Origin: Macrotis lagotis
Taxonomy: Eukaryota > Chordata > Mammalia > Peramelemorphia > Peramelidae
NCBI RefSeq assembly: GCF_037893015.1
Contig: NC_133661.1
Span: 187,125,203 to 187,189,202 of the forward strand
DNA length: 64,000 nucleotides
Reading direction: 5' to 3'
Of the stretch, positions 4,497 through 52,433 are shown piece after piece. The notes below the pieces were generated by a model, which was not told the DNA's origin, made no database searches, and saw only the letters and a list, made by a program, of their open reading frames with translations. Position 1 is the first letter of the stretch. Each line of letters begins with the position of its first letter. Made by a program: the position numbers and the translations under genes.

Positions 4497-6655
<2,159 letters not shown>

Positions 6656-9505: not shown

Positions 9506-12500
9506 TCACCAGAGCTGGGTGAAGTTGAATCGAATTTTCAGCAGGTATCGCATATGAACCTGATTAGGGTTATAGACAATAAATTCATTATAATTGAGGG
9601 TATAGCCCTCTGGGTTCAGAATTCCTGTATTACTTGCTGGTCCTAGGGGCACTGTGGATCCATTCCTGTCAAAGGAAAGAAGATAGAAAGGCTTTATTAA
9701 AACCTGTCTGGTCAAGGAATAGAAAGAATGGAATTAGTCAAAATAATTGTTAATACTTACAGAGTAACATAATGGGAGGGATTGGGAGCCATTTTGCCCA
9801 TTCCCTTGGTACTATGTTTGCCCTGCAGCAGTCCTGCTGCTTCTGGATTGGCCTCTAGCAACTCATTACATTCACCCAGGGCTACCTACACAAGAAAATA
9901 TCCTTGAAATTCACATAACATGTTTCCCCTCTAATAGTTGATAACTAGGAAGCATTTTAGCAGAATCACTGTCATACCTTCTCTCATTAAAAGATTCTCT
10001 TAATTTAAGCATAAGAGAGTGGAAGGCAGGTCATATGTTGATCATTTACAAGTCTAGAACCTGAACCCTGATCTTTTGGCTCCCAGTAAGCCCTCATGGC
10101 ATTTTCATCATTCTTTACCTCATTTCAGCTAAATACAAGTGTTGCAGAAAATGACAGAACCTAAGAAAGGGTTTTTATTTTCATGCTCTCTTCCCACCCT
10201 GAGAAGGGCTTCAACTGATAGGCAGTGGGCCCTATCTGCTGAGCCCCTTCCTTACCTCTGAGAGCAGCAGCAGACCTACATCCTTCAGGCGTGAGGCAAA
10301 GCAATAGTTGGCACTCTTGGAGGACATGTCAGCAAAGTATATTCCTTTTCCAAACTGCAATTGGCAAAGGCCTAGGTCAGCACTGAGCCCATGGAGGAAA
10401 AGGTAGAGCTAAACATACCACCAACCCTAGATTTTAAACATCTTGAGCAAAACTTCAGCTCGTTTTCTGGAATTAGGGGTTTAACAACTTTAATTGAGTG
10501 GACAGAATGAAGGTATAGAGCCTTTGGTTTTCAGTGCTCTAAGGGGAAGAAAAAAGGAGCAGCTTTTTCATTTTAGGAGTTAGAAGCCTTCATAAAAAGT
10601 GTTTAGAAGTTAAAGAAGGAAAAGCTCTAGTTGTCAAGAGAGTTAAGAATATCTAGATCCTATCTCCTATTTTCCTTAAAATGCCTAAGAAACAACTGTG
10701 AAGTTTGGGTGGGAGTCCATGAGGAGGTGGAAAAGCACCTCAGTTTCCATCAATCTCAAGACTTCACAGTTCCAATTTCCATGACTACTGAAGAAAATTG
10801 AGATCTAACTTCTTGTGTCAGGCTAGGGCTAAGGGGAACCTCCAGAATTCTCATCAGAACAAGAGTTCTACTCTAAAGACATTAAAGAAAAGTCATGACA
10901 TGTTCAACCTGAGAATTACAACTGTACTCACCATGTAGCCTGTCATGGGAGCTTCAGGGGGAGCAATGCGAAGTCCATGGCTTAGAATCCCCACCCAGTT
11001 ACCCAATCGGGAACCATGCCACAGCAGCATCCTAAGGGAGAGCCAATAGTATCAACCTGTGTTTTTTGTTGCTTCCCTTCCAGTTAGGCTTTGGATAGGA
11101 TCAACTCTCCATTTTCCTTTCCTCCCTCTGCAAATCATACTCTGTTCTTTAGGGAATTAGTTGTAGAGAGATCAGACAGAAGGTTTTCTTTACAAACTCA
11201 GACCTGTTGGGAAGATCCTTCCTGAAGGCTTCATTCTCACCCTCTTTCTCCACTTCGAAGACATCAAGCAAGGTCATAGTGTAGTCGTTATGAGTAGGGG
11301 CATGGGTGGAATGTAAATACTGCGAGATCACCTGGATGAAGGGATGAAAGAAATTATCAGTATTGGACTTGGCATCACTGACTCCGCCCCCCCCATGGGC
11401 TCCTTGATGCATGAAGGTAGAAGTATCTTTCTCAGATTCCCAAAAGATTTCACATTTTAGGAAGAGGCCTCACTCAGCTAAAGTCACACGGATGATAAAA
11501 ATACGGATTCTTTTCTTAATGGATTTGAGAGCCTAACATCAGAAATAATAATAGGAAAAGGAAGCAGTTTCAATAGGGGGAAAGAGAAGATATTTTTTAT
11601 CACTTTGAATTCATGACAGGAATGGTCCAGGGGGCGAAGAGCACAATGCAGGTTTCTATAATGCTGGTCCAGTGGGTGCTCTGGGGTCTTCAGCTCTGTC
11701 TTCACCAGTTTGATGGCAATTTCAATGTCCCCCAGGGCCTAAATGAGATATATAGCTGTGAGACAAGGCTGCTGGGACTAACAGGCTTAAGGGAAGTAGG
11801 CCATCAATCAATCCACATATCTCTTACCTCTAAAAGTTGTATCTTATCTTTCAATTCTTGCTCTGTTCGGATTAGTGGTGGAGTACGAAGCCTAGGACAA
11901 GAGATATAAGCAAATGTTAGTAGCTCACAAGAAGAATAACTCAAAAGGACTAAGAGAAATTCCATCACAAAGTGGGCTGAGGAACCAGATTACTTAGTGG
12001 AGACCAAAAACAGAATAGAATTTCCAGGATATGAAGAAACTGGTGCTCTGAATAGGACAAGAGAGAAAGGAAAAAGTTTCTAATTAAGATTTGAGTCACA
12101 AAAAAGGACTGCAGAATTCCTTACTACAGGGATGCTTATTGATACTTGATTCATCTCCTGATAATAGGTTTTCATAGGAGAATGGCTATACTACTTTTAC
12201 TGCTGTAGAAAATAATAAGGAATGAATTTGCTTGCAGTTAAAGAAAGGGGTATTCTTCAGGTACTTACAAAGCTAGGTTCAATTCTTCCTAAAACTAGAA
12301 ACTAAGTTAGCTGAAGATTAGGGATATAATCTGACACAAAGACACAGATTCCTCAAGAAAAGATTACATTTAATCCAAACCCAGCTTTCCAAGTTATTCA
12401 ATTCCAATTTTGGAACTAAGAAAGACCTTTTACTCTCAAGGGCTAAGAGAAGGTCAATACTCTTCTTCTGCTGGTAAGTTTCTTGGCAGGGATGGAGAAG

Positions 12501-15500
12501 ACAGAAGATTGAAGGGATGTAATGATGGTGATGCCCCAGATGCAACCTTACCCAAAGTCATGTGGGATTCTGGTATAGAACTCATTACATGCTTCCACCA
12601 GGCTCCGCCCACCAAGACCAGACCGGATACAATCTTCTATCTTCTTGAGTGACTGGTAACCTGCCTTGATTTGTGCCACTGTCAGCTTCCCTGTAGGCCC
12701 AATCAAAACACCAGATTTCCTAAATGAGTTTCTGATCTATCCCTTTAGACCATTTAAAGGAAACTCAATGCACCCAATCTTTATGCTATCCCCAATTCAG
12801 TACTTCTATCAGGGAAGTCCAATCTAGATTTATGGGGGAGAAAGAAGATCCCACTTTGAGATCTGGGGAAAGAAGGGAAGAATTCATTACAAGGCTCATA
12901 CCCAGCGGGGCTTTTTTGATATCATACTTCATCTCTACCATCATTTCTTCCATGGTCTGAATGTTGCAAATTAACTCTATCAACTCTTGGACTGGAAGCT
13001 CCAGCTGAGACTCTACTTTGGGAGGCGAAATGGGAGCCACTGTCCCTTCCTTTGATTCTTCTTCACCCTGAGACAGATTATAGAACCTATTTAGAAAGGA
13101 TTTATAGACATAATCTAGTTCTAGTCACATAAGTCCCTTCTACCTAACTCCTAACAAAGTCATGCAGTCTGCTTGAGAACCTCCTGGAGTAGCAAATTCA
13201 TTATTTTTGGAGGCAGTTCATTCTATTTCTAGACATCCTTTAATTATTAGAGTTCTTTTTTCTGGACTAGATCTATGACTTCATTGGCATAAGGAATACT
13301 CCATGAGGAACTTCCTGAATCCTTGGTAAATTAAGTCTTTTGTAAAGAAGTCTTAAAGAGGGGCAGCTAGGTGGTGCAGTGGATAAAGCACCCTCCCTGG
13401 AGTCAGGAGTACTTGGGTTCAAATCTGATCTCAGACACTTAATAATTACCTAGCTGTGTGGCCTTGGGCAAGCCACTTAACCCCATTTGCCTTGGAGGAA
13501 AAAAAAAAAAGAAGTCTTAAAGAATTGCCTGGGGCAGTGAGAGCTTAAGTGGCCATAAAGAGTTGAGACTGGACCCCAGGGCCAGCTCTCTACCCACTTT
13601 ACTTCTCAAAAAAGTTCATTCTATCGAGTCTAGTGTATGTTTGTAGTTTTGCCCATTTCTACAACTGTCCTCTAAAGAAACACAACATCCTTTTCAAATG
13701 CTTGAAAATCCCACGTCCTCTTTTACAAGTTAAATATCTCCAATTCCTTAGGCTATTCCCAGGGTTCTTTTGCTTAAAAAGAGTTAGAACTGAACACAAT
13801 GTTCTAAATGCAATTTTATCAATGTTTGACATTGTTGGAGCACTACTTTTCTATACACCCCTCTTCAACTAACAGTAAAACAGCAAATAAAAGTTTCCTA
13901 TAATCTGCAAGGATATGAGAGTTCTGCTCCTTCCCTGTCTACTTTGTCTCATTCTCACAACCATAATTAATCAAGATTATCAGTCACAAAATTGGTGAAT
14001 CCTAATCTTCAGGGAATGGTCAATTCCCAGGGAAAAAGGTAGCTTTACCTAAGGTGAGCTAACTATAGCTTTTCCCCAGAGGAAATGTTAGGAAATACCT
14101 GAGTATTGGTTGTATAGTCCATCTGGAGCATATCATATTTTCCAGGAACTTTCTCAAAGCTGCCACGATCTTCCCAACTATTCTTTGTTTTATCAAAAAA
14201 TCTGTGGAGTTCAAAGAAGAAGGGAGAAAACAATCACATAGATGAAGTTACATGACTATTTTCATACTCTGCAGAACAACTTTGCCTCATCACAAAGGAT
14301 CTTTGCGAAGCCCCACTTACTACATAGAATGTTCTCATATTACCATCCCATAAAAAACTATACTCAAAGGAATGGAAAGAGAGAAAACTCAAGAGGAATG
14401 AACAGGATTCTAAGGATTTTCAAAGTATGATTACATGAATCCTTGAGCCTAGACACAGAAGAAATAGCTCCCATTTTTCTGGTCATAAAAAGCAGGTATT
14501 TCTAAGGATTTGCAGGTCTTGGGATACATATTCAAGGGAAGGGAGAAGTTGATATAAAGACAGTTTCTGATCTCTAGATATTCTCCAGACATTGGAAGTC
14601 TCCTTTCCTCCTTGTCTTTTGAAATAATACAACATACCATCACATACTTGAATTTTATGGTCTCTAGTTAGCTTCAGAAAAGTCAGGCAGACAATTCCTA
14701 CTTGACTAAGAAGGTAGCATCTTCATCAAAAGAAGAGATGCTTTGGTGGATATTTTCCTGCCCACTTGCTAGGGCACTCACTTCTTTTGAAATATTTCTT
14801 TGGCTTTGTTTAGGTCCCCAGAACAAGTCACCAAACTGTGCTGTCCAACCTTCCCAACTGCAAAGGAAATGCCAGTGATAATGTCAGTCCTAAAGAGAAG
14901 CTCAATCCCTGTACAGTTGCTTAAGACAGAGAAAAACTTAATTTCCTCATGACTGCTATTCACTACTAAGGAAAAAGCAGGCCACAATGGTTGAAGGAGA
15001 CAAAGAAATTCTAGGGGTAGAGAAGTCTGGTAGAGTTTGAGGATTTGTTGATTCTTTTAATACAGATAATACATTTACCATAAAAGAAAGCAAGACCCAA
15101 ATCTAATTGCCCATATTGTTTTGACAGGGTCATCTTGGAGTCTGAAGGATGAACATTTCTTGAGAAGGGTACTGTTTCTCTTTGTACTTCCACCTCAAGA
15201 GCAGGAACTATATTAAATTTCTTTACTCAAGAAATCCATATTTCTTTGCATCACTCCAACCCTTCAGTTCCCATATGATCAATTCTAATCCAGAACACCC
15301 TTCATTTATTAGCAAACTGACCTAACTTTTCAAATACGATACCCCTCTCCCCCGCCCATGCTCCAAACCCCTTTTATAGCCATCACCTCGGCCCCATCTC
15401 ATCCAGACACTGAAGTTTCTCTGTCCATCATCTTCTAGCAGTTGGATGATATAATACTTGTTATTGTTGAACTGGAGATTGGTCTACAAGGATTGGAATA

Positions 15501-21500: not shown

Positions 21501-24500
21501 TCCTTACTCTTTAATTTACTCTATAAATTGAAAGTTGTTCTTCACAATGTTCTCCTTGCTCCCCTGTAGGAATCATCCTCTATGCTGAAACAATGAATAG
21601 GTTTTTCTCCTTAGTGTATCTTTATCTATCCCCCTGTTCTCTTCAGTATATATACTTTTCTCAGTATGTCTTAGAACTTCTTTGTACACCCCATACCTTA
21701 TATAACTTGTTCCATCTTTCTCTACTATATGCATAAGATTATCCAATTGACTACTTCTTTCTCCACATATCAAAATCCCACGTTGAATTTCAGGCATTTT
21801 AAAATTAAATTAATAAACCTGAGAAACTACATATACCTGAAAGCTGGCGCTCTATTCTGCGCTGGTATCCACTTTTGCAATTGGTCTGTACCATGTTGTC
21901 CACATCCAGGGTATAACGTTTTCGGCCAAACATCACATCTATCTTTGACTCATTGCTTTCTGTTAGAGCTGCCTCCAGAGCCAGGCAAGTTTTAACATCA
22001 TATGGGATCCAGTCATCTTCCTCATCGTTCTGCCACTGCCAGACAAAATCTAAAGGGTAATAATATAATAAGGAAGATTTTGTAGGAGTTAGGGTGAAGA
22101 AGATAAAAGACAAAATTTTGAATTACCACCTCTACTCATCAGAAAGGTCTCAAAGGAAAATGTAAGTTGCATTTCTTTCCTCAAATTGTTACTAGGTCTT
22201 TCAGATTTGAGTCAATAAACATTTCTTAGGTGCTTAATCTTTTGCAAGCAATCTACCATCCAATGGTCCTGGAAACCAAACTATCTAATACAGAAATCCT
22301 AAGAGCCAAATTAGCCCTCTGACCTTCTACTTATAGTCTATAAAGAAAATCCAGGGGCGGCTAGGTGGCACAGTGGGGGCAGCTAGGTGGAGCAGTGGAT
22401 AAAGCACTGGCCCTGGAGTCAGGAGTACCTGGATTCAAATCCAGTCTCAGACACTTAATAATTACCTAGCTGTGTGGCCTTGGGTAAGCCACTTAACCCC
22501 ATTTCCCTTGCAAAAAACAAACAAACAAAAAAAAAGAAAATCCAACAAAACTCCTTTTTAATGATAGTGCCATGAAACAAGGAAACTATGTTATGATTAG
22601 AGAGAGGCACTGTAATCATTATGTTGACAACAAATGTGATTTGTACAAATTACAAGTTTTGCATAAGTAATAAAATAATAATAGATTTATGGTATCTGTC
22701 CCTAAATTGAACACCTCCTGATAAAAGAATAGACACTTACAGGAGTCCTTTTCCTTGATAGCAACAGCAATTCTCCTCTCAGACCTTGACTTTGTATTCC
22801 TCTGGACCATCTTCTTAAAGTCCACCTGGAGCTTCATGTTTCCACTCTCTGATGAAATATTTACCAAAGCAGTTCCTTTCCTGAAAGAAAAGCCCAATTT
22901 GAGGCAATCATTCCTATTCAAGTTCCTAAAATCAAAACCTTGGTAACTGTCATCCACAGACCTCCAGATCACTCCCCTTTATTTATCAATGAGTTCAGTT
23001 CATTGTTCACAATCTTTCTCTCCTCCACATTAGTGACTTTAAAATACATACTGACCCTCCCTCAAAAACCCTATCCATTTGGTTTCTTTACCTACTCAAC
23101 TTTTCACAATTTACTCCTTCATCCCATTTCAACCACACGCAGAGACTGTCATACCCTAGATCTTTTAATCACCCACAAAATACACTACTTCCATGTTCAA
23201 GAATTCCCCAAATTCCTTCTCTGACTATAATCTTTGCTTTCTGTTGTCAACCCAATTCTTTGTCCACACAGTAATCTCCAATTCCTTGAACCCTCATTTC
23301 TCCCTCAGGCCATTCACTACAGTAGCCACACTTTCCTTTTTTTCCCCATCTTGACCTCTTGTCAAACCAGTTGAATCCCTCACTCCTTTATCATATCACT
23401 AATTGCAGTCTGCCAAGCCTCAGTCTTGGATCATTCCTACCATGCACCATCTCTGCTCTTATATACATATTGCTAAAGAAGGTAGAGAAAATCATGCAAC
23501 TGTTCTGACAGGGTCTATTAAAAACTTTAGTTACAAAATTTCAACTGGGTTCTCAATGCTTCTAGACAATCTCCTCCTTTATTAAACTCACTTTCCCATT
23601 CTTCACAGCACTCTTCCAAACCATTTCATCCTTCCTCAAATTTCTAATGGCATCCACCCCCCTTATCCCACTCCCTCACCTGAGATCCTTGTCTCAAGTT
23701 TTACAGAAAAAAAATTGAGGCCATCTGCCATGAATTCTCTCTTCTACTTTCTTCCTTATCCCATACATGTGTGTGTGTGTGTGTATGTGTGTGTGATATA
23801 TATATATATATATATATACATATATTTATATATATACCCTCTGCCACTATCTTTCTTTACCCATCTCACATAATAAAGTAGCCTTACTCCTTTCTCTCTA
23901 TATACAACCAATTCCATTCCATCCCATCTCCTCAACAGATTGCCCCCACTGTCCTCTCCTACTCTATCACTTACTTTCAATCTCTTCCTATTGGTTCCTT
24001 CCCTACCTGCAAAACATACTCATGTCTCTCCATCCTCAAAAAACCCTCTCATGATACTTTCATCCCCTTTATATCTTCTGAAAAGGCTAATAGGTGCCTC
24101 TACTTTCTCTCCTCTCACTCTCTACTCAACACACTACAATCTGGCTTCCCATTTCTTTGTTCCACCAAAACTATTCTCTCCAAAGTTACTAAGGATTTCT
24201 TAATTACCAAATCCTGCAGCCTTTTCTCATTCCTTATTCTTCTGAACTTCTCTAGTCTTTGACATTGTTGACCACCTTCCCCTGGATATTCTCTTGAGTT
24301 TTCTTTTGAAGGTCTCCTTATATCTACTGGAACCTTCCTTCTCCATCTCCTTTGCAAAATTCTCATCTACATTCTAAATGCTGGATTATAGTTGAAATCA
24401 TACTCTCAAGTCAATTCTAGGCCCCTTCTCTTCTCCCTTTATAATATTACTCCCTCTCTACTAATGATCTCTCATCAGCTCCCAAGGATTGAATGATCAT

Positions 24501-26858
24501 TTCTATGCTGATGATTCTCAAATCTACCTATCCTGCCCTAATGTACTGACTTCTAAGTTTGCAATCCCATTTGCCTTTCTGACATATAGAACTGGATACT
24601 GTTCAGTAGACAAGATCTTTCCCCTATTATTGTCAAGACAACACCATTCTCCCAGTTCCTCAGGCTCCTAAGCTGGGTATCATCCTTGATTTCTCACTAA
24701 CTTTCACCCCACACAGCCAATCTGTTGAGAAAACCTATGGATTTCACCTATGACACATCTCCCAAATATGTGTCTTACTAGCCTCTGATCTTGCCCTCAC
24801 TCTAGGGCAGATATTTATCACCTCACACTGGTAGATTTGCTTCTCTCATTTCTTTCTCCACACTTATCCATCCTCCATTCATCCTACAAAGTAAGTTTCC
24901 TAAAGTGCAGGCCCAAACATATCACTCCCATACTCCAGGATCAAAAAAAAATACCCACATGTTCTAATTCAGTGATACTAGTATTCCATGAACAAGATCC
25001 TCAGCTATTCTCCTTCCTCATCTCTATCTGTGGGTTCCCTGGCTTGTGTAAAGTGCCATCTAAAATCCTACCTCCTTTTAATTCTAATGCCTTCCCTCTT
25101 TTAATCACCTCTGATTTGTCCTGTATACTGTTTGTACATTTTTGTTGGCCTGTTGTCTCCTGTTAGACCGTGAGGACAGTCTATTGCTTCTTTTTGTATT
25201 CCCAGTGCCTAGAATAGAGTGGGACATACAGTAGACACTGAATAAATGAGCTAGACTCAAATTTCTTAATACCTACAGAGGAAAACACGAAAGACAAACT
25301 AAATCCATGAAAGAATCAATCCAAAAGAATTGCCAGCAAGGGGGAAAAAGGACATCTGGTTCTCCAGTAAAAGAATCAGTGGTTCCTTGATGGAAGAAAG
25401 ACCAAGAATAACCTAAAATGCAAAAATGAAAGATTTGCCTCATGAATCTTATCATTATCTCACTAAACTAGATGCTGTAGAACATTTTTGAGATAGAGAA
25501 AAGGATGGAGTGATCCTCCATTCAACTGATTCATTAAAATTTTGGTGAACTTTTCCATTGACCTTCTGAGAGACTCTAGAGGCTAGAGATATTTTCTTAT
25601 TGCAGTCAGCAACTCCCAACTGAGATAAAAACTGGATGAGACAAACTCAATGCAAGTACATGTCAGAACATGGTCCCTGAATCTCATGTACCTCAGATAG
25701 GAAAGTATCCCCAGGGAAATTTTATTCCAAATTATCCCTTTGAACCAAATCTTAACCTCTGATATGGAAAATGAGAGGAAATTCTTAATCATACTGACCT
25801 GAAAGCCTCTGTGATCTCTGTATCCTGAGCAGAAGAATACCAATGCCAGACGCCTTCTGTGTCTTCCCATTGCCAACGAAATTTAATGGTAGGTGAGGCT
25901 GTCTCACTCTTTTCAGATTCTGGCTCTGGGTCTTGAAGCTTTATCTTTGCTGCTGGAGAGAAAACAGAAATGGAACTTGGGGACTGTCCAGAGGGGTGCG
26001 CCAGTGGGGTGGGTACCAAAGGGTAGAACCTGGACTATCCGTCATAGATCTGAGGGGCTGGTCGTATAATCAGGGAGACCTTGGTTCAAATGCTACCTAG
26101 GACAATTCCTAGCTGTTTTACTCCCTCCCTCCGGCCGGGTTCACTTCTCTAAACTTCAGTTTCTGTCAGGGGGTTTGGACTAGATGGTTACTAAGGTCCC
26201 TTCCAGTCCTAGCTTTGGATATACGAGATGAAAGGTTGGACTCAGGAGCATCTAAGGTCCCTCCTCTGTCTGGTCAAGTTAAGTCAAGAAGCGCCATGAG
26301 ACGTTTGCTATGTGGTATCCGGGCACTGCCAAGCGCTACTAGCTCTGCCCTCGGAGGACTCAGTCTTGGGTGAGGGGCAACACTGGCAGATGTAGTTCTG
26401 GATCCGGACCCAGATCCGCCCAAGGCAGGGCTCGACTCGTTGGTCTTCAGACGGAGCCTTTCCCGCTGGAGTCCTGGTGATGTCTCATCTGTCCTTTGCA
26501 CTGGGAGCCCGTGCTGCTGTCGGGGCTCCGTGGGGCGCATCGGGGGTGCTCGGAGTCAAAGATCCCGCGAGGGGGACGGAAAGAATGAGGGGCCCGCCAG
26601 CCTGCAGGCGCGGGGCAACGGATCGGGAGAGGCTTCGGTCGGACCTCTGACCCTCGACCCCCGACCCCCGCCCAGTCCGCGCAAACCGAGACTGGGGAGA
26701 AGCCCCACCCCCTCCTAGGCCCGGAACGCTCCCATTCCCGTAGGCTACTCGGCGGGCGGCGGAGAGGTGAGCCCCGGCCTCTTGCAACCCCCATTCCCGA
26801 GCCCCGAAACCCGCTTCGAACCTCGGGCGTGGCCGGTGCCTCTCCCGCGCGAGGGCAT
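9506..26858 (-). CDS. PARP2: PARP2 with two N-terminal WWE domains, 19 exons
   Basis: DNA-damage-activated nuclear ADP-ribosyltransferase. Exons in transcript order: 26789-26858, 25799-25952, 22741-22880, 21837-22049, 20926-21102, 20342-20412, 19544-19594, 15387-15483, 14782-14857, 14099-14201, 12902-13067, 12552-12690, 11828-11891, 11604-11738, 11204-11331, 10932-11031, 10256-10354, 9761-9885, 9506-9665. All junctions are AG/GT, all phases agree, and the sum is 2268 bp (755 codons plus stop). Domains: basic N-terminus; WWE1 about 47-121; WWE2 about 122-192; acidic/basic linker; WGR about 275-410; helical regulatory domain; ADP-ribosyltransferase domain with the H-Y-E triad at His600 (WHGS), Tyr634 (KGIYFAD) and Glu730 (YNEF). 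Human PARP2 is about 570-583 residues in 16 exons, so the extra length and the three extra exons are the WWE part. The start was chosen by Kozak context (taccATG) and a human-like SKRV segment. The exon 1 donor (gttgca) is weak and is the least certain junction. Confidence 0.93.
13360..13510 (+). mobile_element. WSINE1/Mar1-type SINE in PARP2 intron 10
   Basis: Full-length copy with a perfect 13-bp target duplication 'gaagtcttaaaga' (13347-13359 and 13511-13523) and an A-rich tail. It looks young because the duplication is intact. Confidence 0.95.
15545..15727 (-). mobile_element. WSINE1/Mar1-type SINE in PARP2 intron 7
   Basis: Reverse-oriented copy with a long T-run, flanked by the duplication 'aggaaattc' (15536-15544 and 15728-15736). 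It carries a small trinucleotide (att) expansion in the 'aattattattattaag' part. Confidence 0.93.
17540..18404 (+). pseudogene. L1/HAL1 ORF1 (nucleic-acid-binding coiled-coil protein), broken
   Basis: A typical start reads [20 protein letters not shown] and then stops. The main open part (17679-18404, 241 codons) is in another frame: a Lys/Glu-rich coiled coil over about residues 1-105, then the RRM-like part with [19 protein letters not shown] and [23 protein letters not shown] follows NDLGL, after which the C-terminal domain ([14 protein letters not shown]) continues with further stops. ORF1 proteins trimerise and bind LINE RNA; this copy cannot make a complete one. Confidence 0.8.
18720..19100 (+). 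repeat. Purine-rich low-complexity part of the HAL1-like element
   Basis: Long G/A-rich stretches including a short (ga)n run near 19084-19100. The opposite-strand open frame here is a by-product of the pyrimidine-rich complement. Confidence 0.6.
19630..19835 (+). repeat. MIR-family SINE in PARP2 intron 6
   Basis: Contains 'atttgcaaagtacttttac', 'gttcaaagaagctaaacaag' and 'gcagtatttgaacccagatc', the MIR body in forward orientation. Old and diverged. Confidence 0.65.
20045..20160 (+). repeat. 3' tail of a long Mar1/RTE-type marsupial SINE
   Basis: 'atggcatcaccttcctgatg' followed by 'tcatgttcttcctcaagaac' is the same tail as in the full copy at 58338-58645. It lies in PARP2 intron 6. Confidence 0.6.
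21837..22049 (-). CDS. PARP2: PARP2 exon 4: complete WWE2
   Basis: A whole second WWE domain is in one exon: [20 protein letters not shown], then [20 protein letters not shown], then [20 protein letters not shown]. All the family landmarks are present (WQW, W.PYD, LE.A, Y.LD...M.Q.N, R.I.R). The tandem arrangement recalls Deltex, whose two WWE domains form one recognition unit; this is an analogy only. The exon is flanked by 'accctttag' and 'gtatat'. Confidence 0.92.
22354..22532 (+). mobile_element. SINE with duplicated head in PARP2 intron 3
   Basis: A 22-bp partial head (22354-22375) is followed at once by a complete WSINE1-type copy (22376-22532). One target duplication 'aaagaaaatcca' (22342-22353 and 22533-22544) brackets both, so they arrived as one insertion. 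Confidence 0.92.
22741..22880 (-). CDS. PARP2: PARP2 exon 3: second half of WWE1
   Basis: The acceptor is 'cttttctttcag' and the donor is 'gtaagt'. It reads [20 protein letters not shown], then [20 protein letters not shown]. The pattern (V.I, then [15 protein letters not shown]) is the conserved second half of WWE, which includes the Gln and Arg positions that contact iso-ADP-ribose in characterised family members. A decayed inverted copy of this exon lies at 30425-30547. Confidence 0.9.
22950..25230 (+). mobile_element. Long L2 LINE fragment in PARP2 intron 2
   Basis: A pyrimidine-rich LINE runs antisense to PARP2. The reverse-transcriptase landmark [12 protein letters not shown] lies at about 24495-24530 (YADD motif of the CR1/L2 clade). 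It is followed by the 'ccacacagccaatctgttg' and 'cctaaagtgcaggcccaaac' blocks of the C-terminal region. Many stops and frame changes; inactive and ancient. It fills most of intron 2 and has no counterpart in the inverted PARP2 copy at 30.1-31.8 kb. Confidence 0.8.
23766..23840. repeat. (TG)n-(TA)n microsatellite inside the L2
   Basis: A run of tg dinucleotides passes into ta dinucleotides and a short 'acatatatttatatatata' tail. Confidence 0.9.
25799..25952 (-). CDS. PARP2: PARP2 exon 2: linker and first half of WWE1
   Basis: The exon lies between 'ctctccag' and 'gtcagt'. It reads [19 protein letters not shown], then [19 protein letters not shown]. The WQW, the second Trp/Tyr cluster and the later Glu are the hallmark positions of the first half of a WWE domain, as in RNF146, Deltex and PARP11-14. 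The exon ends in phase 2 and completes the codon R|K with exon 3. Confidence 0.9.
26060..26230 (+). repeat. MIR/Ther1-class SINE in PARP2 intron 1
   Basis: Contains 'gaccttggttcaaatgctac' and 'ttggactagatggttactaa' followed by 'ggtcccttccagtcctag', a Ther1/MIR-class structure in forward orientation. Confidence 0.65.
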
Positions 26859-26916
26859 GGTACCCTCTCCCCCCACTTTTCTGGTCCACTGTCCGGGACC
26901 GCTCTCTGGATACGAC

Positions 26917-26926
26917 GCATGCGCAC
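26917..26926. promoter_or_regulatory. NRF1-type site (CGCATGCGCA)
   Basis: Matches the core of the palindromic NRF1 consensus TGCGCATGCGCA. The same bases contain an upstream ATG on the PARP2 strand (26918-26920) that is out of frame with the main start at 26858. Confidence 0.5.
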
Positions 26927-26937
26927 TACGAAGAAAC

Positions 26938-26950
26938 GGGAATTCCCGCG
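26938..26950. promoter_or_regulatory. GGGAATTCCC palindrome overlapping an E2F-like TTCCCGCG
   Basis: GGGAATTCCC (26938-26947) is a perfect palindrome that fits the NF-kB consensus. It overlaps TTCCCGCG, an E2F-like box. Both lie between the PARP2 start and the RPPH1 promoter elements. Function is inferred from motif only. Confidence 0.35.
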
Positions 26951-26960
26951 CAGCCCAGCT

Positions 26961-27050
26961 TGACGTAAGTTATCATTTGCATACCGCCGAGAGGCTCATG
27001 GGATATTCGCCCTCTGTTAGAAAGAGTCGGGATTTTCTGAGCTTTATATA
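26961..27050 (+). promoter_or_regulatory. RPPH1: RPPH1 type 3 Pol III promoter / PARP2 bidirectional promoter
   Basis: Elements in order: TGACGTAA (26961-26968, ATF/CRE-like), ATTTGCAT (26975-26982, perfect octamer), a possible SPH/ZNF143 site around 26993-27011, a PSE-like stretch around 27009-27027 and TTTATATA (27043-27050). The TATA box lies about 30 bp before the RNA start. This reproduces the architecture of the human H1 promoter (octamer, SPH, PSE, TATA), which is shared head to head with PARP2. The PSE and SPH calls are by position and are the weakest. Confidence 0.85.
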
Positions 27051-27074
27051 GCGGCGCCCGGGCGGGAGCATTGC

Positions 27075-27428
27075 GTGGGGCGGAGGGAAGCTCATGAGTG
27101 GGGCCACGAGCTGAGTGCGTTACGTCACTCTCACCCAGCCCTTGGGAAGGTCTGAGACGAGGGCCAAGCGCGGCCCTAGCAGGGCTCCTCCCGCGAGCGT
27201 GGGGGGGTGAGTTCCCAGAAAATGGGTCCCGGCTCGGGGGGCAGAGTGGGCAGGAGAAGCCCTCGAGCTCCGTCTTCCTCCGCCAAGGGGAGCGGGCCTG
27301 GGCGGATGCCTCCCCCCGCCGGGGCTTGGAAACGACTCACGGCCGGCGAAGTGAGTGCAATGGCTGAGGTGGGCTACCTCCTGGAGGATCCCATAACCCA
27401 ATTCAGACTACTCTCCCCCGCCCCGGCT
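27075..27428 (+). ncRNA. RPPH1: RPPH1, RNA component of nuclear RNase P (H1 RNA)
   Basis: Catalytic RNA of RNase P, which removes 5' leaders from pre-tRNAs. The body matches human H1 RNA almost block for block: 'ggggcggagggaagctcatg', 'ggccacgagctgagtgcgt', CR-I 'gggaaggtctgagac' (27144-27158), 'ggtgagttcccaga', 'ggcggatgcctcc', 'gactcacggcc', 'gcgaagtgagtgcaatggct' and CR-V 'cccaattcagactactctcc' (27397-27416). CR-I and CR-V can form the P4 helix (ggtctga with ttcagac). The 5' GGGGCGG can pair with the 3' CCGCCCC (P1). Length about 354 nt versus 341 in human. The first T5 terminator is at 27428-27432. It appears functional. Its last ~30 nt are the first unit of a tandem array. Confidence 0.96.
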
Positions 27429-27983
27429 TTTTCATGCAATACTTTTTATTTGCTTTTTCCCAATTCAGACTACTCTCCCCCGCCCCGGATTTTTCATGCA
27501 ATACTTTTTATTTGCTTTTTCCCAATTCAGACTACTCTCCCCTCGCCCCGGCTTTTTCATACAATACTTTTTACAAATACTTTTTATTTGCTTTTTCCCA
27601 ATTCAGACTACTCTCCCCCGCCCCGGATTTTTCATACAACACCTTTTATTTGCTTTTTCCCAATTCAGACTACTCTCCCCCGCCCCGGCTTTTTCATACA
27701 ATACTTTTTATTTGCTTTTTCCCAATTCAGACTACTCTCCCCCGCCCCGGATTTTTCATACAATATTTTTTATTTGCTTTTTCCCAGTTCAGACTACTCT
27801 CCCCTCGCCCCGGATTTTTCATACAATACTTTTTACAATACTTTTTATTTGCTTTTTCCCAATTCAGACTACTCTCCCCCGCCCCGGCTTTTTCATACAA
27901 CACCTTTTATTTGCTTTTTCCCAATTCAGACTACTCTCCCCCCGCCCCGGCTTTTTCATACAATACTTTTTATTTGCTTTTTC
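27397..27983 (+). repeat. Nine-copy 62-bp tandem array of the RPPH1 3' end and terminator
   Basis: Units start at 27397, 27459, 27521, 27597, 27659, 27721, 27783, 27858 and 27920. Each carries CCCAATTCAGACTACTCTCC (CR-V, P4 3' strand), the CCGCCCC of P1, and three T-rich blocks: a T5 Pol III terminator after CGGC/CGGA and two more T-rich runs within the next 30 bp. Units 3 and 7 are longer (76 and 75 bp) because 'atacttttta' is locally duplicated, and both have CCCCTCG in place of CCCCCG. Units 4 and 8 share 'caacacctttt'. This gives a four-unit higher-order period of about 262 bp. Units 1-2 have 'catgcaa' and 3-9 'catacaa'. The first unit is the real gene end. Confidence 0.95.
27428..27458 (+). 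terminator. RPPH1: RPPH1 Pol III terminator cluster
   Basis: Three T5 runs follow the RNA end: 27428-27432, 27443-27447 and 27454-27458. Pol III normally stops in the first. The cluster is repeated in later array units. Confidence 0.8.
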
Positions 27984-29019
27984 GACTAGCAAGGTGCTGC
28001 CCCTCTTTTTTTTAAAGACCTTTATTAAGTTTGCCGTTTTGTGGATTTTTGAAAAAAAAAAATCAGGTGTACTTTTATACAAATTAAAAAGGAGGTTCCT
28101 AAAAATTTCAATTTGACCAGATATGGCCCTCCTTTTTGAACTTCCTTTTATTTGTATTCCCGCGGCTCACAGGAGGCGCATAATAAATAGTTATTAAATT
28201 GAACCTCTCAAAACAAAGAGAATTTACATTGGGAAACATAACTATCCTAGTACTCGAATAAGGCATTTCCTGGAGTGGGAGGAGAGGGCTATGAAAATAG
28301 TAATGATTGAACAACTTTTACTAAACACATTGATGCAAAAATGATTTCCAAAAAACGAATAAGCTACAGCAACATATTGGAAAGATTCACTTTATAACTA
28401 ATTATATTTAACCCAGGAGTGCAAGTTTGGTTTAACATTAGGAAGCCCTTCTGTAGAGGGAAACCAACCTAGGATATTTGAGAGAAATGTCACCTCCCCT
28501 TGGGAATGCATGTTATTTTTTATAAGCTTTCTTACAAGAAAAATATGCTCTAGCTTTGGTATTGTTTCAGGTTCTTTGCAATTTCTGATTGGACTTGCTT
28601 TAAAAAATCTTTTTTTTATTATGAATTTAAGATGCAAACATGGCCATTAAATGTAAAACAGAACAAATCATGGATCAACAAACATTTATTAAATGTCTGT
28701 TACAGAAAACTGGGATCATTCCTGCCTTCAAAGCACCTAGAATCTGTTCTGGATCAGAAGAAGATTGCCTGCCATGGGGTTATCTACCAGGTCTCAATTT
28801 CTCACTAAAATATTTGTATAATTACATTAAGGAAGGACCTACAAATTCCCAAATAATGCTCTGGATAGGGAGATATTATAGTACATAGATTAAAGGGAGG
28901 AATTAGCAGCAAGAATTTACTTCTATTCTTTTGAGTCAAAAAAAAAAAGAAGCTGAAACAGAAAGTTCTTCCTTTACAAGAAATCTCCCCATTATACAAA
29001 TAACTTTATGTATAGAATT
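27984..29019. other. Unassigned intergenic DNA
   Basis: No gene or well-defined repeat is seen. A short 'cataataaatagttattaaa' piece near 28169 is SINE/L2-like. CCNB1IP1, the next gene in human, was not found. Confidence 0.4.
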
Positions 29020-31625: not shown

Positions 31626-31764
31626 AACACTCAAGACCAAGGGGCTCAGATGCCCAGCTCAAGTTCATTCACTGTTTTTCAAGAGATCTGGAGCCTTTAG
31701 CTTTTCTAGTATTATTGATTTAAAAAGGACTCCTCAGAGGCAATAGTGCTGTCAAGAATATGGT

Positions 31765-32497
31765 CAAAGGATATGCAAAGGCAATTTACAGATAAGGAAA
31801 TCAAAGCAATCCATAGTCATATGAAAAATTGCCCTGAATCATTACTTATTAGAAAAATGCAAATTAAAGCATCTCTGAGATACTACCTCACATCTCTCAG
31901 ACTGACCAATATGACCAGAAAGGACAATGATAAATATTGGAAGGGATGTGGGAAATCTAGGACACGAATACATTGTTGGTGGAGCTGTGAACTCATCCAA
32001 TCTTTCTGGAGAGCAATTTGGAATTATGCCCAAAAGACAACAAAAATGTGCATATGCTTTGATCCAGCAATACCACTACTGGGTCTATACCCTGAAGAGA
32101 TTATGAAAAAGGGTAAAAACATCACTTGTACAAAAAATATTCATAGCAACTCTGTTTGTGGTGGCAAAGAATTGGAAATTAAGTAAATGTCCTTCAATTG
32201 GGGAATGGCTTAACTAACTGTGGTATACGTTTGTGTGTGTGTGTGTGTGTGTGTGTGATATGTAACACAATTGTTCTATTAGAAACCAGGAGGGATGGGA
32301 ATTCAGAGAAGCCTGAAAGGATTTGCATGAACTGAGGCTGAGCAAGATGAGCAGAACTAGAAAAACATTGTACACCCAAATTGCAACATGGGGATGATGA
32401 CCAACCTTGATGGACTTGCTCATTCCATCAGTGCAACAAACAGCGACTATTCTAGAGTATCTGTGATGGAGAATATCATCTGTATCCAGAGCATCTT

Positions 32498-40536: not shown

Positions 40537-41715
40537 TTCCGGCCAAGATGGCAGAGAGAAGACAGGCACAGTTCTAAAGTCTCCTGATCTCTTCCCCATC
40601 TATCACATGAAACAAACCTCTTAAAAGAAATCAGATCCAGAAAACCCAGAAAGAAAAGCCAGAAGAACAGCTACCTCAGGATTCCGGGCGGGTGGGTCTG
40701 GGCTCCAAGGGATCTGCCCCATCAGCCAGATTAACAGCTGAATTGGAACCGGGAGTCTGAGGTCCTGAGAGCCGGACCTGCTGGATCAGCGGTGGGGCTG
40801 GACGAAAGGGGCTTAGGTCCATGGGGAAGCAGAGGTGCTGGTGTTGGTGCTGTCCCCCTGGAGCTCCGGGACCAGGCTGGGGGAAGTATTCTGGTGCAGG
40901 AGAACAGCAGACACCATCCCTAGGCTTCTCGGGTCTGAGAAACTCTGAGGGCAAGCCTCCATTGCACAGAGGCTTCTCCTCAAACAAAGGCAAATTACTT
41001 CTGCCTCAGGCCCAGGTGTGTGAGCAAAAGAACCAGCCCAGCTGAGGAATGACCTCAGGCCAGGGTAAAGCCCACCATTGATTGAAGGCAAAAGAATTCA
41101 ATAGTTCCAACTCCTGCCTTCGGGCAAAGGGAGAAGGCCTCAATCAAGGTCACAGACACTCCAGAGAAAGCAACCAGCACCTCCTACTGGCCAGCCAGAA
41201 AACTGCATTCAGTAAAGCCTTCAGAGATTTCAAGCCCAGGTGAACCAGCCCCCGCCAACTCAAGGTCTTAGCATAATGAAGAAGGGTCAGCGGAAAGGTG
41301 AATCCATAGAAAAATTCCTGGAAGGGAAAGACCCCAACTCAGAGAGACCTGGAACCTCTGAGGAGAATACAATCTGGTCTCCAGCACAGAAAGACTTCCT
41401 TGAAGAAATAAGGAAGGAGCTTAAAAATTTGGGGGAGACAATACCTTAGAAAGTACAATTGGACAAACACAAAAGGAGAATAAATCTCTCAGATCATCAA
41501 TTGGACAATTACAAAATGAGAATAATTCTCTCAGATCCTCAAACAAGCAAATGCAAAAAGAAATTAATTCTCTCAAAACCTCAATTGGTCAAATGGAAAG
41601 CTCTTTCAAAAGTAGAATTGACCGATTGGAAAAGGAGTTGCAAAAGGTTAATGAAGAAAACTCCTCCCCCCAAAAAATAATGAAGTCTACAGAAACTAAT
41701 GACTCCATGAGACAT
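40537..41715 (+). mobile_element. L1 5' end: 5' UTR and ORF1 N-terminus, 3'-truncated
   Basis: Begins 'ggacttccggccaagatggc' and contains a GC-rich 5' UTR. ORF1 starts at 41277 with MKKGQRKGESIEKFLEGKD, an early TAG near 41447, and then a coiled-coil region with 14-residue (42-bp) tandem repeats of the type IGQLQNENNSLRSS (about 41457-41625). It is lost after about 41715, before the RNA-binding part. This is the only young L1 head in the window; the other young L1s are tails. Confidence 0.85.
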
Positions 41716-43110
41716 TATAGATCAGACTTTGGAAAATTTTCAAGAATAGTGAACAAAAGTACAGGAAACTTGTTCATTAGGCCTATTTTTGCAATTCCTC
41801 AGCCTTATAAAATGATATTTCACTGTGAGAAGCAACTTGGAGTTAGACTAGAGACTTGGATTTGAGTCCTGGTTCAGACAGTCAATAGCTACTTGACACA
41901 AGTAAGCCACATTACCCCCAGTGAGCACCCAAATTGAGTCAGGGAACATTTGTACTGGCCACTTTTCCAGGGTGCTTGTGCTCATTCTGACAACCTTAAA
42001 GTGCTGTATAAATGTGAGCTGGTGTTGGTCATTTGTATTGCTGTTATTATATTCATTCCTGCCTGTTAGGAAAATTTTTCCTGCTTGCATTTCACGTGTA
42101 TGTGTTAATTGTATACATCTTACCTCTATCGATAGTTCATCAAAAGGGGCTTTACAAAGGTCTAGGCTAATATATGATTATTTTTCACAGTGAAAGCATT
42201 GAATATGCCATAATTAATACATTTTCCAACACAGCTAAAGTATAGTCCATTTATTTATGAGCATTTACCCAATTCAGGCTATTATGGCATAATTTTCCTG
42301 TATTATATGACATCCCTTTTCTCATGGAACCACTATGAGTTCTCTTTATCCAGAGACAGAGCACTCTCTAGTGGTGGTAGAGGGTGCTTTTTGCAAGGAA
42401 TTATTCCCAATTAAGGGATATAAAAATCACTGATGCCTAGAAGATAGGATCCTGCAAAGGGGTATGATGGGCTGTGGGAGGGAGACACAGAAGAGTGCTC
42501 CCCATTCTCAGCAATTCTTCTGTGACCTCTCTAAGGTGAGAACATTCTTCATATATTGATAACAAATCATTCTGAGTATATTCTGAGCAACAAAGATTGC
42601 TCACTGTTTTGTAGTGAACAAGAAGGAAAAATAGGAACCTTCTAACTCATTTTTATCCCCCTTATCCGTAGCTTAAATGTGGAATATTTTATTTCTTTAA
42701 AGGGAGGCTTTTACCTTATTAGAACATATCGAGGTAATGAAATGGAATGGTATGGCTTGGCCAGAACCCTAAAGGGCCTCTCTAGCTCCTCAGGTCCTGG
42801 CATACCTGGCAGCTCCCCCTCTTTATGTTCAGTGAATGGAGTTTAGCTCTCAGCTAGACTTTTTGATTAATGGCAGTCGGTAGTATTAGAGCTCCATTGA
42901 TATTCCAGCTGCCTCATAGAGTGCTAGAATATTCCTAGTCTAATGAACAACAAACACTGTGCTATTTGAAGAGAAAATCAAGACTTTTGGAACCAGTACT
43001 GTCAAAGACAAGTTGTGACAGTGTGTGGCTCAGCCAAGACCAGGTTCCCTTAATTGCTTGTCTCAGGTACAGGAAGATGCAGGAACACAGAAGCTTTGCT
43101 CCAGTTCAGA
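41716..43110. other. Unassigned intergenic DNA
   Basis: MIR/Ther1-like similarity at about 41840-41930 ('ggatttgagtcctggttcag'). No coding gene is recognised. Confidence 0.4.
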
Positions 43111-51424: not shown

Positions 51425-52433
51425 ATTTATTTTTTTTTAATTAAAGATTTTATTTATTTTGAGTTTTACAATTTTCCCCCATCTTACTTCCCTCTCCCCA
51501 CTCCCCCACAGAAAGCAATTTGTCAGTCTTTACATTGTTTCCATGTTGTACATTGATCCAAATTGAGTGTGATGAGAGAGAAATCATATCCTTAAGGAAG
51601 AAACATAAAGTGTAAGAGATAACAAGATCAGACAATAAGATATCAGTTTTTTTTTCCTAAATTAAAGGGAATAGTCCTTGAACTTTGTTCAAATTCCATG
51701 GTTCTTTATCTGGATACAGATGGTATTTTCCATTGCAGATAGCCCAAAATTGTCCCTGGTTGTTGCACTGATGAAATAAGTGTGTCCATCAAGGTTGATC
51801 ATCATGCCCATGTTGCTGTTAGGATATACAGTGTTCTGGTTCTGCTCATCTCACTCAGCATCAGTTCATGCAAATCCCTCCAGGTTTCCCTGAATTCCCA
51901 TCCCTCCTGGTTTCTAATAGGATAATAATGTTCTATGACATACATATACCACAGTTTGCTAAGCCATTCCCCAACTGAAGGACATTTACTTGATTGCCAA
52001 TTCTTTGCCACCACAAACAGGGCTGTTACGAATATTTTTGTACAAGTGATGTTTTTACCCTTTTTCATCATCTCTTCAGGGTATAGGCCAGTAGTGGTAT
52101 TGCTGGATCAAAGGGTATGCACATTTTTGTTGCCCTTTGGGCGTAGTTCCAAATTTCTCTCCAGAAAGGTTGGATGAGTTCACAGCTTCACCAACAGTGT
52201 AATAGTGTCCCAGATTTCCCACAACCCTTCCAACAATGATCATTATCCTTTCTGGTCATATTGACCAGTCTGAGAGGTGTGAGGTGCTACCTCAGAGAAG
52301 CTTTAATTTGCGTTTCTCTAATAATTAATTATTTTGAGCAAATTTTCATATGACTGTGGATTGCTTTGATCTCCTCATCTGTAAATTGCCTTTGTATATC
52401 CTTTGACCATTTGTCAACTGGGGAATGGCTTTT
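51425..52433 (-). mobile_element. L1, 5'-truncated, complete 3' end
   Basis: Minus-oriented L1 tail from 'ggtcaaaggatatacaaagg' to the terminal repeat of its 3' UTR, with a clear 15-bp target duplication 'gaaaaagtgattttt' (51410-51424 and 52434-52448). Confidence 0.95.

What the first reader, a model, noticed from the sequence alone, without database searches (positions are those of the whole stretch)
27397..27983. RNase P RNA 3' end and Pol III terminator amplified into a nine-unit tandem array
Seen: nine direct copies of a ~62-bp unit. The first is the genuine end of RPPH1; each later unit repeats CR-V (the 3' strand of the catalytic P4 helix), the 3' strand of P1 and a cluster of T-rich terminator runs. 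Known: CR-V pairs with CR-I to build the RNase P core, and Pol III stops at T4-5. Inference: the array gives several back-up terminators. Read-through transcripts would carry alternative P4/P1 3' strands that could compete for CR-I or fold as extended RNAs. I know of no such array behind human H1 RNA.
Basis: partly seen in the sequence, partly recalled or inferred. Interest (0 to 1): 0.88.

Follow-up and report, generated by a model that had tools for sequence, protein, structure and literature searches.

The report
RNase P gene's tail became minisatellite
Behind an intact RNase P RNA gene, probably of a marsupial, the last bases of the gene and its stop signal are repeated nine times head to tail; this is most likely an ordinary DNA minisatellite whose extra copies are predicted to be almost never transcribed by the gene's own polymerase.

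Summary
RPPH1 (27079-27422, Rfam RF00009, 221 bits) runs into a nine-unit array without spacers, 27397-27982 (units of 62, 62, 76, 62, 62, 62, 75, 62 and 63 bp). Unit 1 is the gene's own 3' end plus terminator. Among TRF rows for the window it is the only array with more than 3.3 copies of a unit above 3 bp. That fits five units growing to nine by one out-of-register exchange. The back-up-terminator reading is weak: unit 1 alone has three T5 runs, and at a published 95% stop per T5 (passage of PMC6023835) about 1 in 8000 polymerases would leave it. Competing 3' strands are thermodynamically possible if such RNA existed, which nothing here shows. No excess conservation of the RNA part was found. 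Verdict: a probably young minisatellite seeded at the 3' end of an essential Pol III gene. No orthologous locus could be obtained, so age, polymorphism and spread are untested.

The parts
26975..26982 (+). Octamer ATTTGCAT of the RPPH1 (H1) promoter
   Evidence: Exact motif, the only one in the stretch 26500-28700 examined, either strand; position again; the meaning of the motif is recalled
27043..27050 (+). TATA box of the RPPH1 promoter, about 30 bases before the RNA start
   Evidence: TTTATATA found at 27043; role recalled
27079..27422 (+). RPPH1, nuclear RNase P RNA, full length against the Rfam model
   Evidence: RF00009, 221 bits, E 3.2e-66, model 1-301 of 301
27397..27458 (+). Unit 1: genuine gene end (CR-V, 3' strand of P1) plus terminator with three T5 runs (27428, 27443, 27454)
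27459..27520 (+). Unit 2, 62 bp
   Evidence: a sub-threshold RF00009 3'-end match, 27433-27484, ends in it (15 bits against 28)
27521..27596 (+). Unit 3, 76 bp: extra T in the P1 strand and a 13-bp internal duplication that adds a fourth T5 run
27597..27658 (+). Unit 4, 62 bp, middle T-run shortened to T4
27659..27919 (+). Units 5-8: second copy of the four-unit block 27397-27658
   Evidence: 6 mismatches and 1 gap column in 262 columns
27920..27982 (+). Unit 9, 63 bp, closest to unit 5; followed by the unique flank CGACTAGC
26201..27500 (.). CpG island around the RPPH1 promoter; it reaches the start of the array
   Evidence: 300-bp windows with GC above 0.5 and CpG o/e above 0.5; PARP2-like exons lie on the - strand to the left

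Best explanation
A minisatellite that arose by tandem duplication of the last 26 nt of RPPH1 together with its 36-bp terminator. Unit 1 still does the whole job: it supplies the 3' strands of P4 and P1, and three T5 runs stop Pol III. The first duplication left at most one base of shared sequence at its ends. Later growth went by slippage or unequal exchange; the last large step copied a four-unit block, most simply turning five units (A B C D A) into nine. Units 2-9 are downstream DNA that Pol III almost never reaches. SHOWN: anatomy, unit order, block structure. INFERRED: the exchange step, little read-through, lack of function.
For: Units differ by 1-6 changes; mean difference is lowest at lag 4 (1, 2, 2, 1, 1; mean 1.4), against 3.5, 3.43, 3.33, 3.75, 4.0, 3.0 and 2.0 at lags 1, 2, 3, 5, 6, 7 and 8 (lag 8 is one pair and fits period 4). 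38 of 50000 random unit orders are as low at lag 4, 106 of 50000 if the best of lags 2-5 is taken. Blocks 1-4 and 5-8: 6 mismatches, 1 gap in 262 columns. Breakpoints: left flank ends CCCATAA against unit end GCTTTTT, right flank CGACT against unit start CCCAA, so one shared base. Three T5 runs in unit 1, predicted escape 1.25e-4. No excess constraint on the RNA part: 1 of 26 columns variable against 5 of 36, Fisher p 0.39; with indels 3 of 26 against 6 of 36, p 0.72. The window has no N, and the copies are distinguishable, which speaks against simple assembly duplication.
Against: All 9 units keep both CpGs (18 of 18) in a window with CpG o/e of 0.134, and every T-run slot keeps at least T4. 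This could be constraint, germline hypomethylation, homogenisation or youth. Taking my count of 7 substitution events in 58 other columns, and assuming a CpG rate 10, 5 or 3 times the ordinary (assumed factors), zero CpG changes has P 0.008, 0.089 or 0.235. With so few variable columns the constraint test has little power. No ortholog, population or RNA data.
Confidence: 0.8

Rival explanations
1. Selected back-up terminator: the array catches Pol III that passes unit 1 and shields downstream DNA.
For: 29 T-runs of T4 or longer in the array; 27 of T5 or longer, against a mean of 2.5 per 587-bp window over the whole 64 kb (array included) and at most 13 in windows outside the array. All slots remain at T4 or longer.
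Against: Unit 1's three T5 runs are predicted to stop all but 1.25e-4, and unit 2 brings this to 1.6e-8, so units 3-9 add nothing measurable. A T8 also lies downstream at 28006-28013. No excess conservation of the terminator: it varies more than the RNA part, not significantly.
Confidence: 0.07
2. Alternative 3' ends: read-through RNAs carry extra CR-V/P1 strands and fold as extended or mis-paired H1 RNAs.
For: Each of the 9 units' strands pairs with the P1 5' strand at -23.1 to -25.8 kcal/mol and with the CR-I stretch at -16.0 to -17.5. In all 9 folded RNAs that end in unit 2 or beyond, unit 1 has summed pair probability 0.0 with both, and a later unit takes P1, e.g. unit 2 at 6.8.
Against: Such RNAs are predicted to be rare. 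The folding is secondary structure only, without protein. An RNA ending in unit 3 has hardly any P1 pairing (1.3); in one ending in unit 7, unit 7 itself has 1.6 while unit 6 has 5.7.
Confidence: 0.04
3. DNA-level element: seven exact GC boxes (CCCCGCCCC) and 18 CpGs extend the unmethylated island of the promoter, or nine AATAAA motifs on the - strand end transcripts running toward PARP2.
For: GC box exact in 7 of 9 units, AATAAA on the - strand in 9 of 9 units; 18 of 18 CpGs kept.
Against: These motifs come with the unit by descent. I identified no - strand gene to the right, but did not search that side systematically. GC falls to about 0.4 across the array. Motif meanings are recalled.
Confidence: 0.06
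4. Assembly artefact: fewer units exist in the animal.
For: Copy number of a near-identical 586-bp repeat can be wrong in an assembly; the near-identical block 5-8 could be a mis-join.
Against: Copies carry private differences (units 6, 7, 9) and unequal lengths; no N in the window.
Confidence: 0.05

Closest known systems
Minisatellites / VNTRs (general class; recalled)
   Same: Head-to-tail units of tens of bases, few differences, length variants between units, higher-order block explained by unequal exchange.
   Different: The first unit is the working 3' end of an essential ribozyme gene.
RPPH1-PARP2 bidirectional locus of human and mouse (Ame et al. 2001, seen only as a reference and as a sentence in passages of PMC13206784)
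   Same: RPPH1 on one strand and PARP2-like exons on the other, to its left.
   Different: Whether any other species has the array was not tested; none could be fetched.
Pol III terminators with several T-runs
   Same: T-runs in series; single T4/T5/T6 stop 75/95/99% of U6 transcription (passage of PMC6023835 citing an earlier study).
   Different: Here the T-runs are multiplied together with gene sequence; the redundancy looks like a by-product.

Membership tests
Minisatellite | Head-to-tail repeats of a unit of about 10-100 bp | tested here: met
Minisatellite | Internal variants arranged as expected from slippage or unequal exchange | tested here: met
   lag-4 structure, 38 of 50000 random orders as low
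Minisatellite | Length polymorphism between individuals | not testable with these tools
   no population data
RPPH1 (nuclear RNase P RNA gene) | Full-length covariance match with promoter elements | tested here: met
   221 bits, model 1-301; octamer and TATA
RPPH1 (nuclear RNase P RNA gene) | Synteny with divergent PARP2 | tested here: met
   PARP2-like exons on the - strand within 12789-13124 and 11149-11466; the first exons next to the promoter were not mapped
Additional RNase P RNA genes (units 2-9) | Match at or above the Rfam gathering score | tested here: not met
   in 27433-28060 one RF00009 match, 27433-27484, 15 bits against 28
Functional back-up terminator | Pol III reaches units 2-9 | not testable with these tools
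   prediction only: 1.25e-4 leaves unit 1

The most novel reading that the evidence does not exclude
The array is a reservoir of near-functional 3' ends: unequal exchange repeatedly replaces the RPPH1 end with another unit, so the 3' end of an essential ribozyme evolves by array turnover, and rare alleles produce H1 RNAs with altered P1 or longer tails.
Probability: 0.08. Interest if true: 0.65.

Novelty: new member of a known kind. Interest (0 to 1): 0.33.

Why it matters
It is a natural case where the functional 3' end of an essential Pol III gene lies inside a potentially unstable repeat. It makes a simple test possible: whether array turnover reaches the gene's own end, and whether serial terminators change anything once three T5 runs are present. 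Otherwise it is a curiosity of one locus.

Tried and rejected
Related sequence: an exact 21-mer of the gene end in viral contigs (0 matches) and a 20-mer in genome contigs (0 matches); these collections are viral and prokaryotic, so the misses mean little. A protein search with one WWE open frame found nothing. The window's own genome could not be searched: seven identical requests did not complete.

[quoted passage not shown] the words RPPH1 and RMRP do not occur in its main text). Rejected as a specific cause here, because GC skew across the array is about -0.5 to -0.6 on the RNA-like strand, the wrong sign for an R-loop of RPPH1 transcription (the sign rule is recalled).

Selection on the RNA part: an early run gave p 0.009 (0.15 with indels), but unit 9 had been cut one base too long there and was misaligned; the corrected run gave p 0.39 (0.72 with indels). 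The early p values and the early lag table are withdrawn. Searches also carried the extra base on unit 9, which does not touch the results quoted from them.

Rfam at a lax threshold on 27433-28060: besides the 15-bit RNase P match, one match to ODC_IRES at 27979-28058 (17.8 bits against 44, E 3.6), taken as chance.

Literature for a precedent: ten searches. RPPH1 with marsupial gave one paper, in which RPPH1 occurs once, in a reference title. No listed title or abstract start described a 3' array of RPPH1, but several listings were partial (12 of 17, 12 of 36, 12 of 120); one search returned none. The library lacks most subscription journals, so this does not show that it is unpublished. One paper asked for by DOI was not held. 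Passages of PMC10450202 were seen and not used.

Full report
What is there. RPPH1 lies at 27079-27422 on the + strand (RF00009, 221 bits, all 301 model positions), behind an octamer at 26975 and a TATA box at 27043 (motif meanings recalled). To its left, on the - strand, two open frames match PARP2 best among solved structures, so this is the RPPH1-PARP2 divergent locus and not a stray copy; a paper states that the endogenous H1 promoter drives H1 RNA and Parp2 in opposite directions (passages of PMC13206784). The first PARP2 exons next to the promoter were not mapped. From 27397, within the gene, nine units run to 27982 without spacer.

Anatomy of the unit. Columns 1-26 are the gene end (CR-V and P1 3' strand; names recalled), columns 27-62 the terminator with three T5 runs. 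Only 6 of 62 core columns vary among the nine units: 1 of 26 in the RNA part, 5 of 36 in the terminator (p 0.39). Length changes are an extra T plus an internal duplication of 13 and 12 bp in units 3 and 7, and an extra C in unit 9. Each unit keeps 2 CpGs and one AATAAA on the - strand; T-runs of T4 or longer per unit are 3 or 4, 29 in all (26 T5, 1 T6, 2 T4).

How it grew. Units are most alike four apart (differences 1, 2, 2, 1, 1). Of 50000 random orders, 38 are as low at lag 4, and 106 are as low at the best of lags 2-5. Units 1-4 and 5-8 differ at 6 sites and one gap in 262 columns; unit 9 differs from unit 5 by one insertion and from unit 1 by two changes. The simplest history is a five-unit array that exchanged out of register by four units. 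That is inference; slippage of a block would look the same. The first duplication left at most one shared base at its ends.

What it does. Unit 1 alone can finish the gene. A paper reports, from the authors' earlier study, stops of 75, 95 and 99% for single T4, T5 and T6 in U6 transcription (passage of PMC6023835). Applied to this sequence, 5% pass the first T5, 0.25% the second, 0.0125% the third, and about 1.6e-8 leave unit 2. These numbers assume independent stops and that the U6 values hold for this gene and species. The same paper reports Pol II activity of the H1 promoter (passages); Pol II RNA could cross the array, and this was not tested. As genes of their own, units 2-9 do not qualify: one RF00009 match of 15 bits, below the 28-bit gathering score.

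Against my reading. Every CpG is kept in all nine units, although the window as a whole is CpG-poor, and every T-run slot is still T4 or longer. I read this as youth, homogenisation and a neighbouring CpG island (26201-27500), but selection is not excluded, and with 6 variable columns the test of constraint is weak. Copy number rests on one assembly. No relative of the locus could be examined (empty; own-genome request unanswered seven times), so nothing here speaks to age, spread or the human comparison.

Verdict. A real and neat structure; most likely a passive minisatellite at the end of an essential gene. Interest is modest because the function proposed is made redundant by unit 1 itself.

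Noticed in passing
21808-22122 and 22622-22978, - strand: Two WWE-domain open frames (Pfam E 1.2e-17 and 1.1e-05, to which 5 of the 54 open frames were given) between the promoter and the PARP2 exons at 11-13 kb. A paper states that WWE domains occur at the N-terminus of PARP2 in many non-mammalian animals, e.g. bird, frog and fish (passage of PMC4245714). If these frames are PARP2 exons, this probable marsupial kept them, and the human loss would be later than the origin of mammals. A protein search with the second frame found nothing.
   Followed up: partly
27445-27974, - strand: One AATAAA motif on the - strand in each of the nine units; in the stretch scanned further ones start at 28021, 28147, 28615 and 28685.
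   Followed up: partly
41456-41594: Longest other tandem repeat with a unit above 3 bp in the window, 42-bp unit, 3.3 copies, in an open frame of 146 aa at 41425-41865 that looks like a coiled coil by eye.
   Followed up: no
5118-6024 (-), 31719-32186 (+), 51802-52107 (-): Open frames that resemble each other by eye and, from recall, L1 reverse-transcriptase proteins.
   Followed up: no
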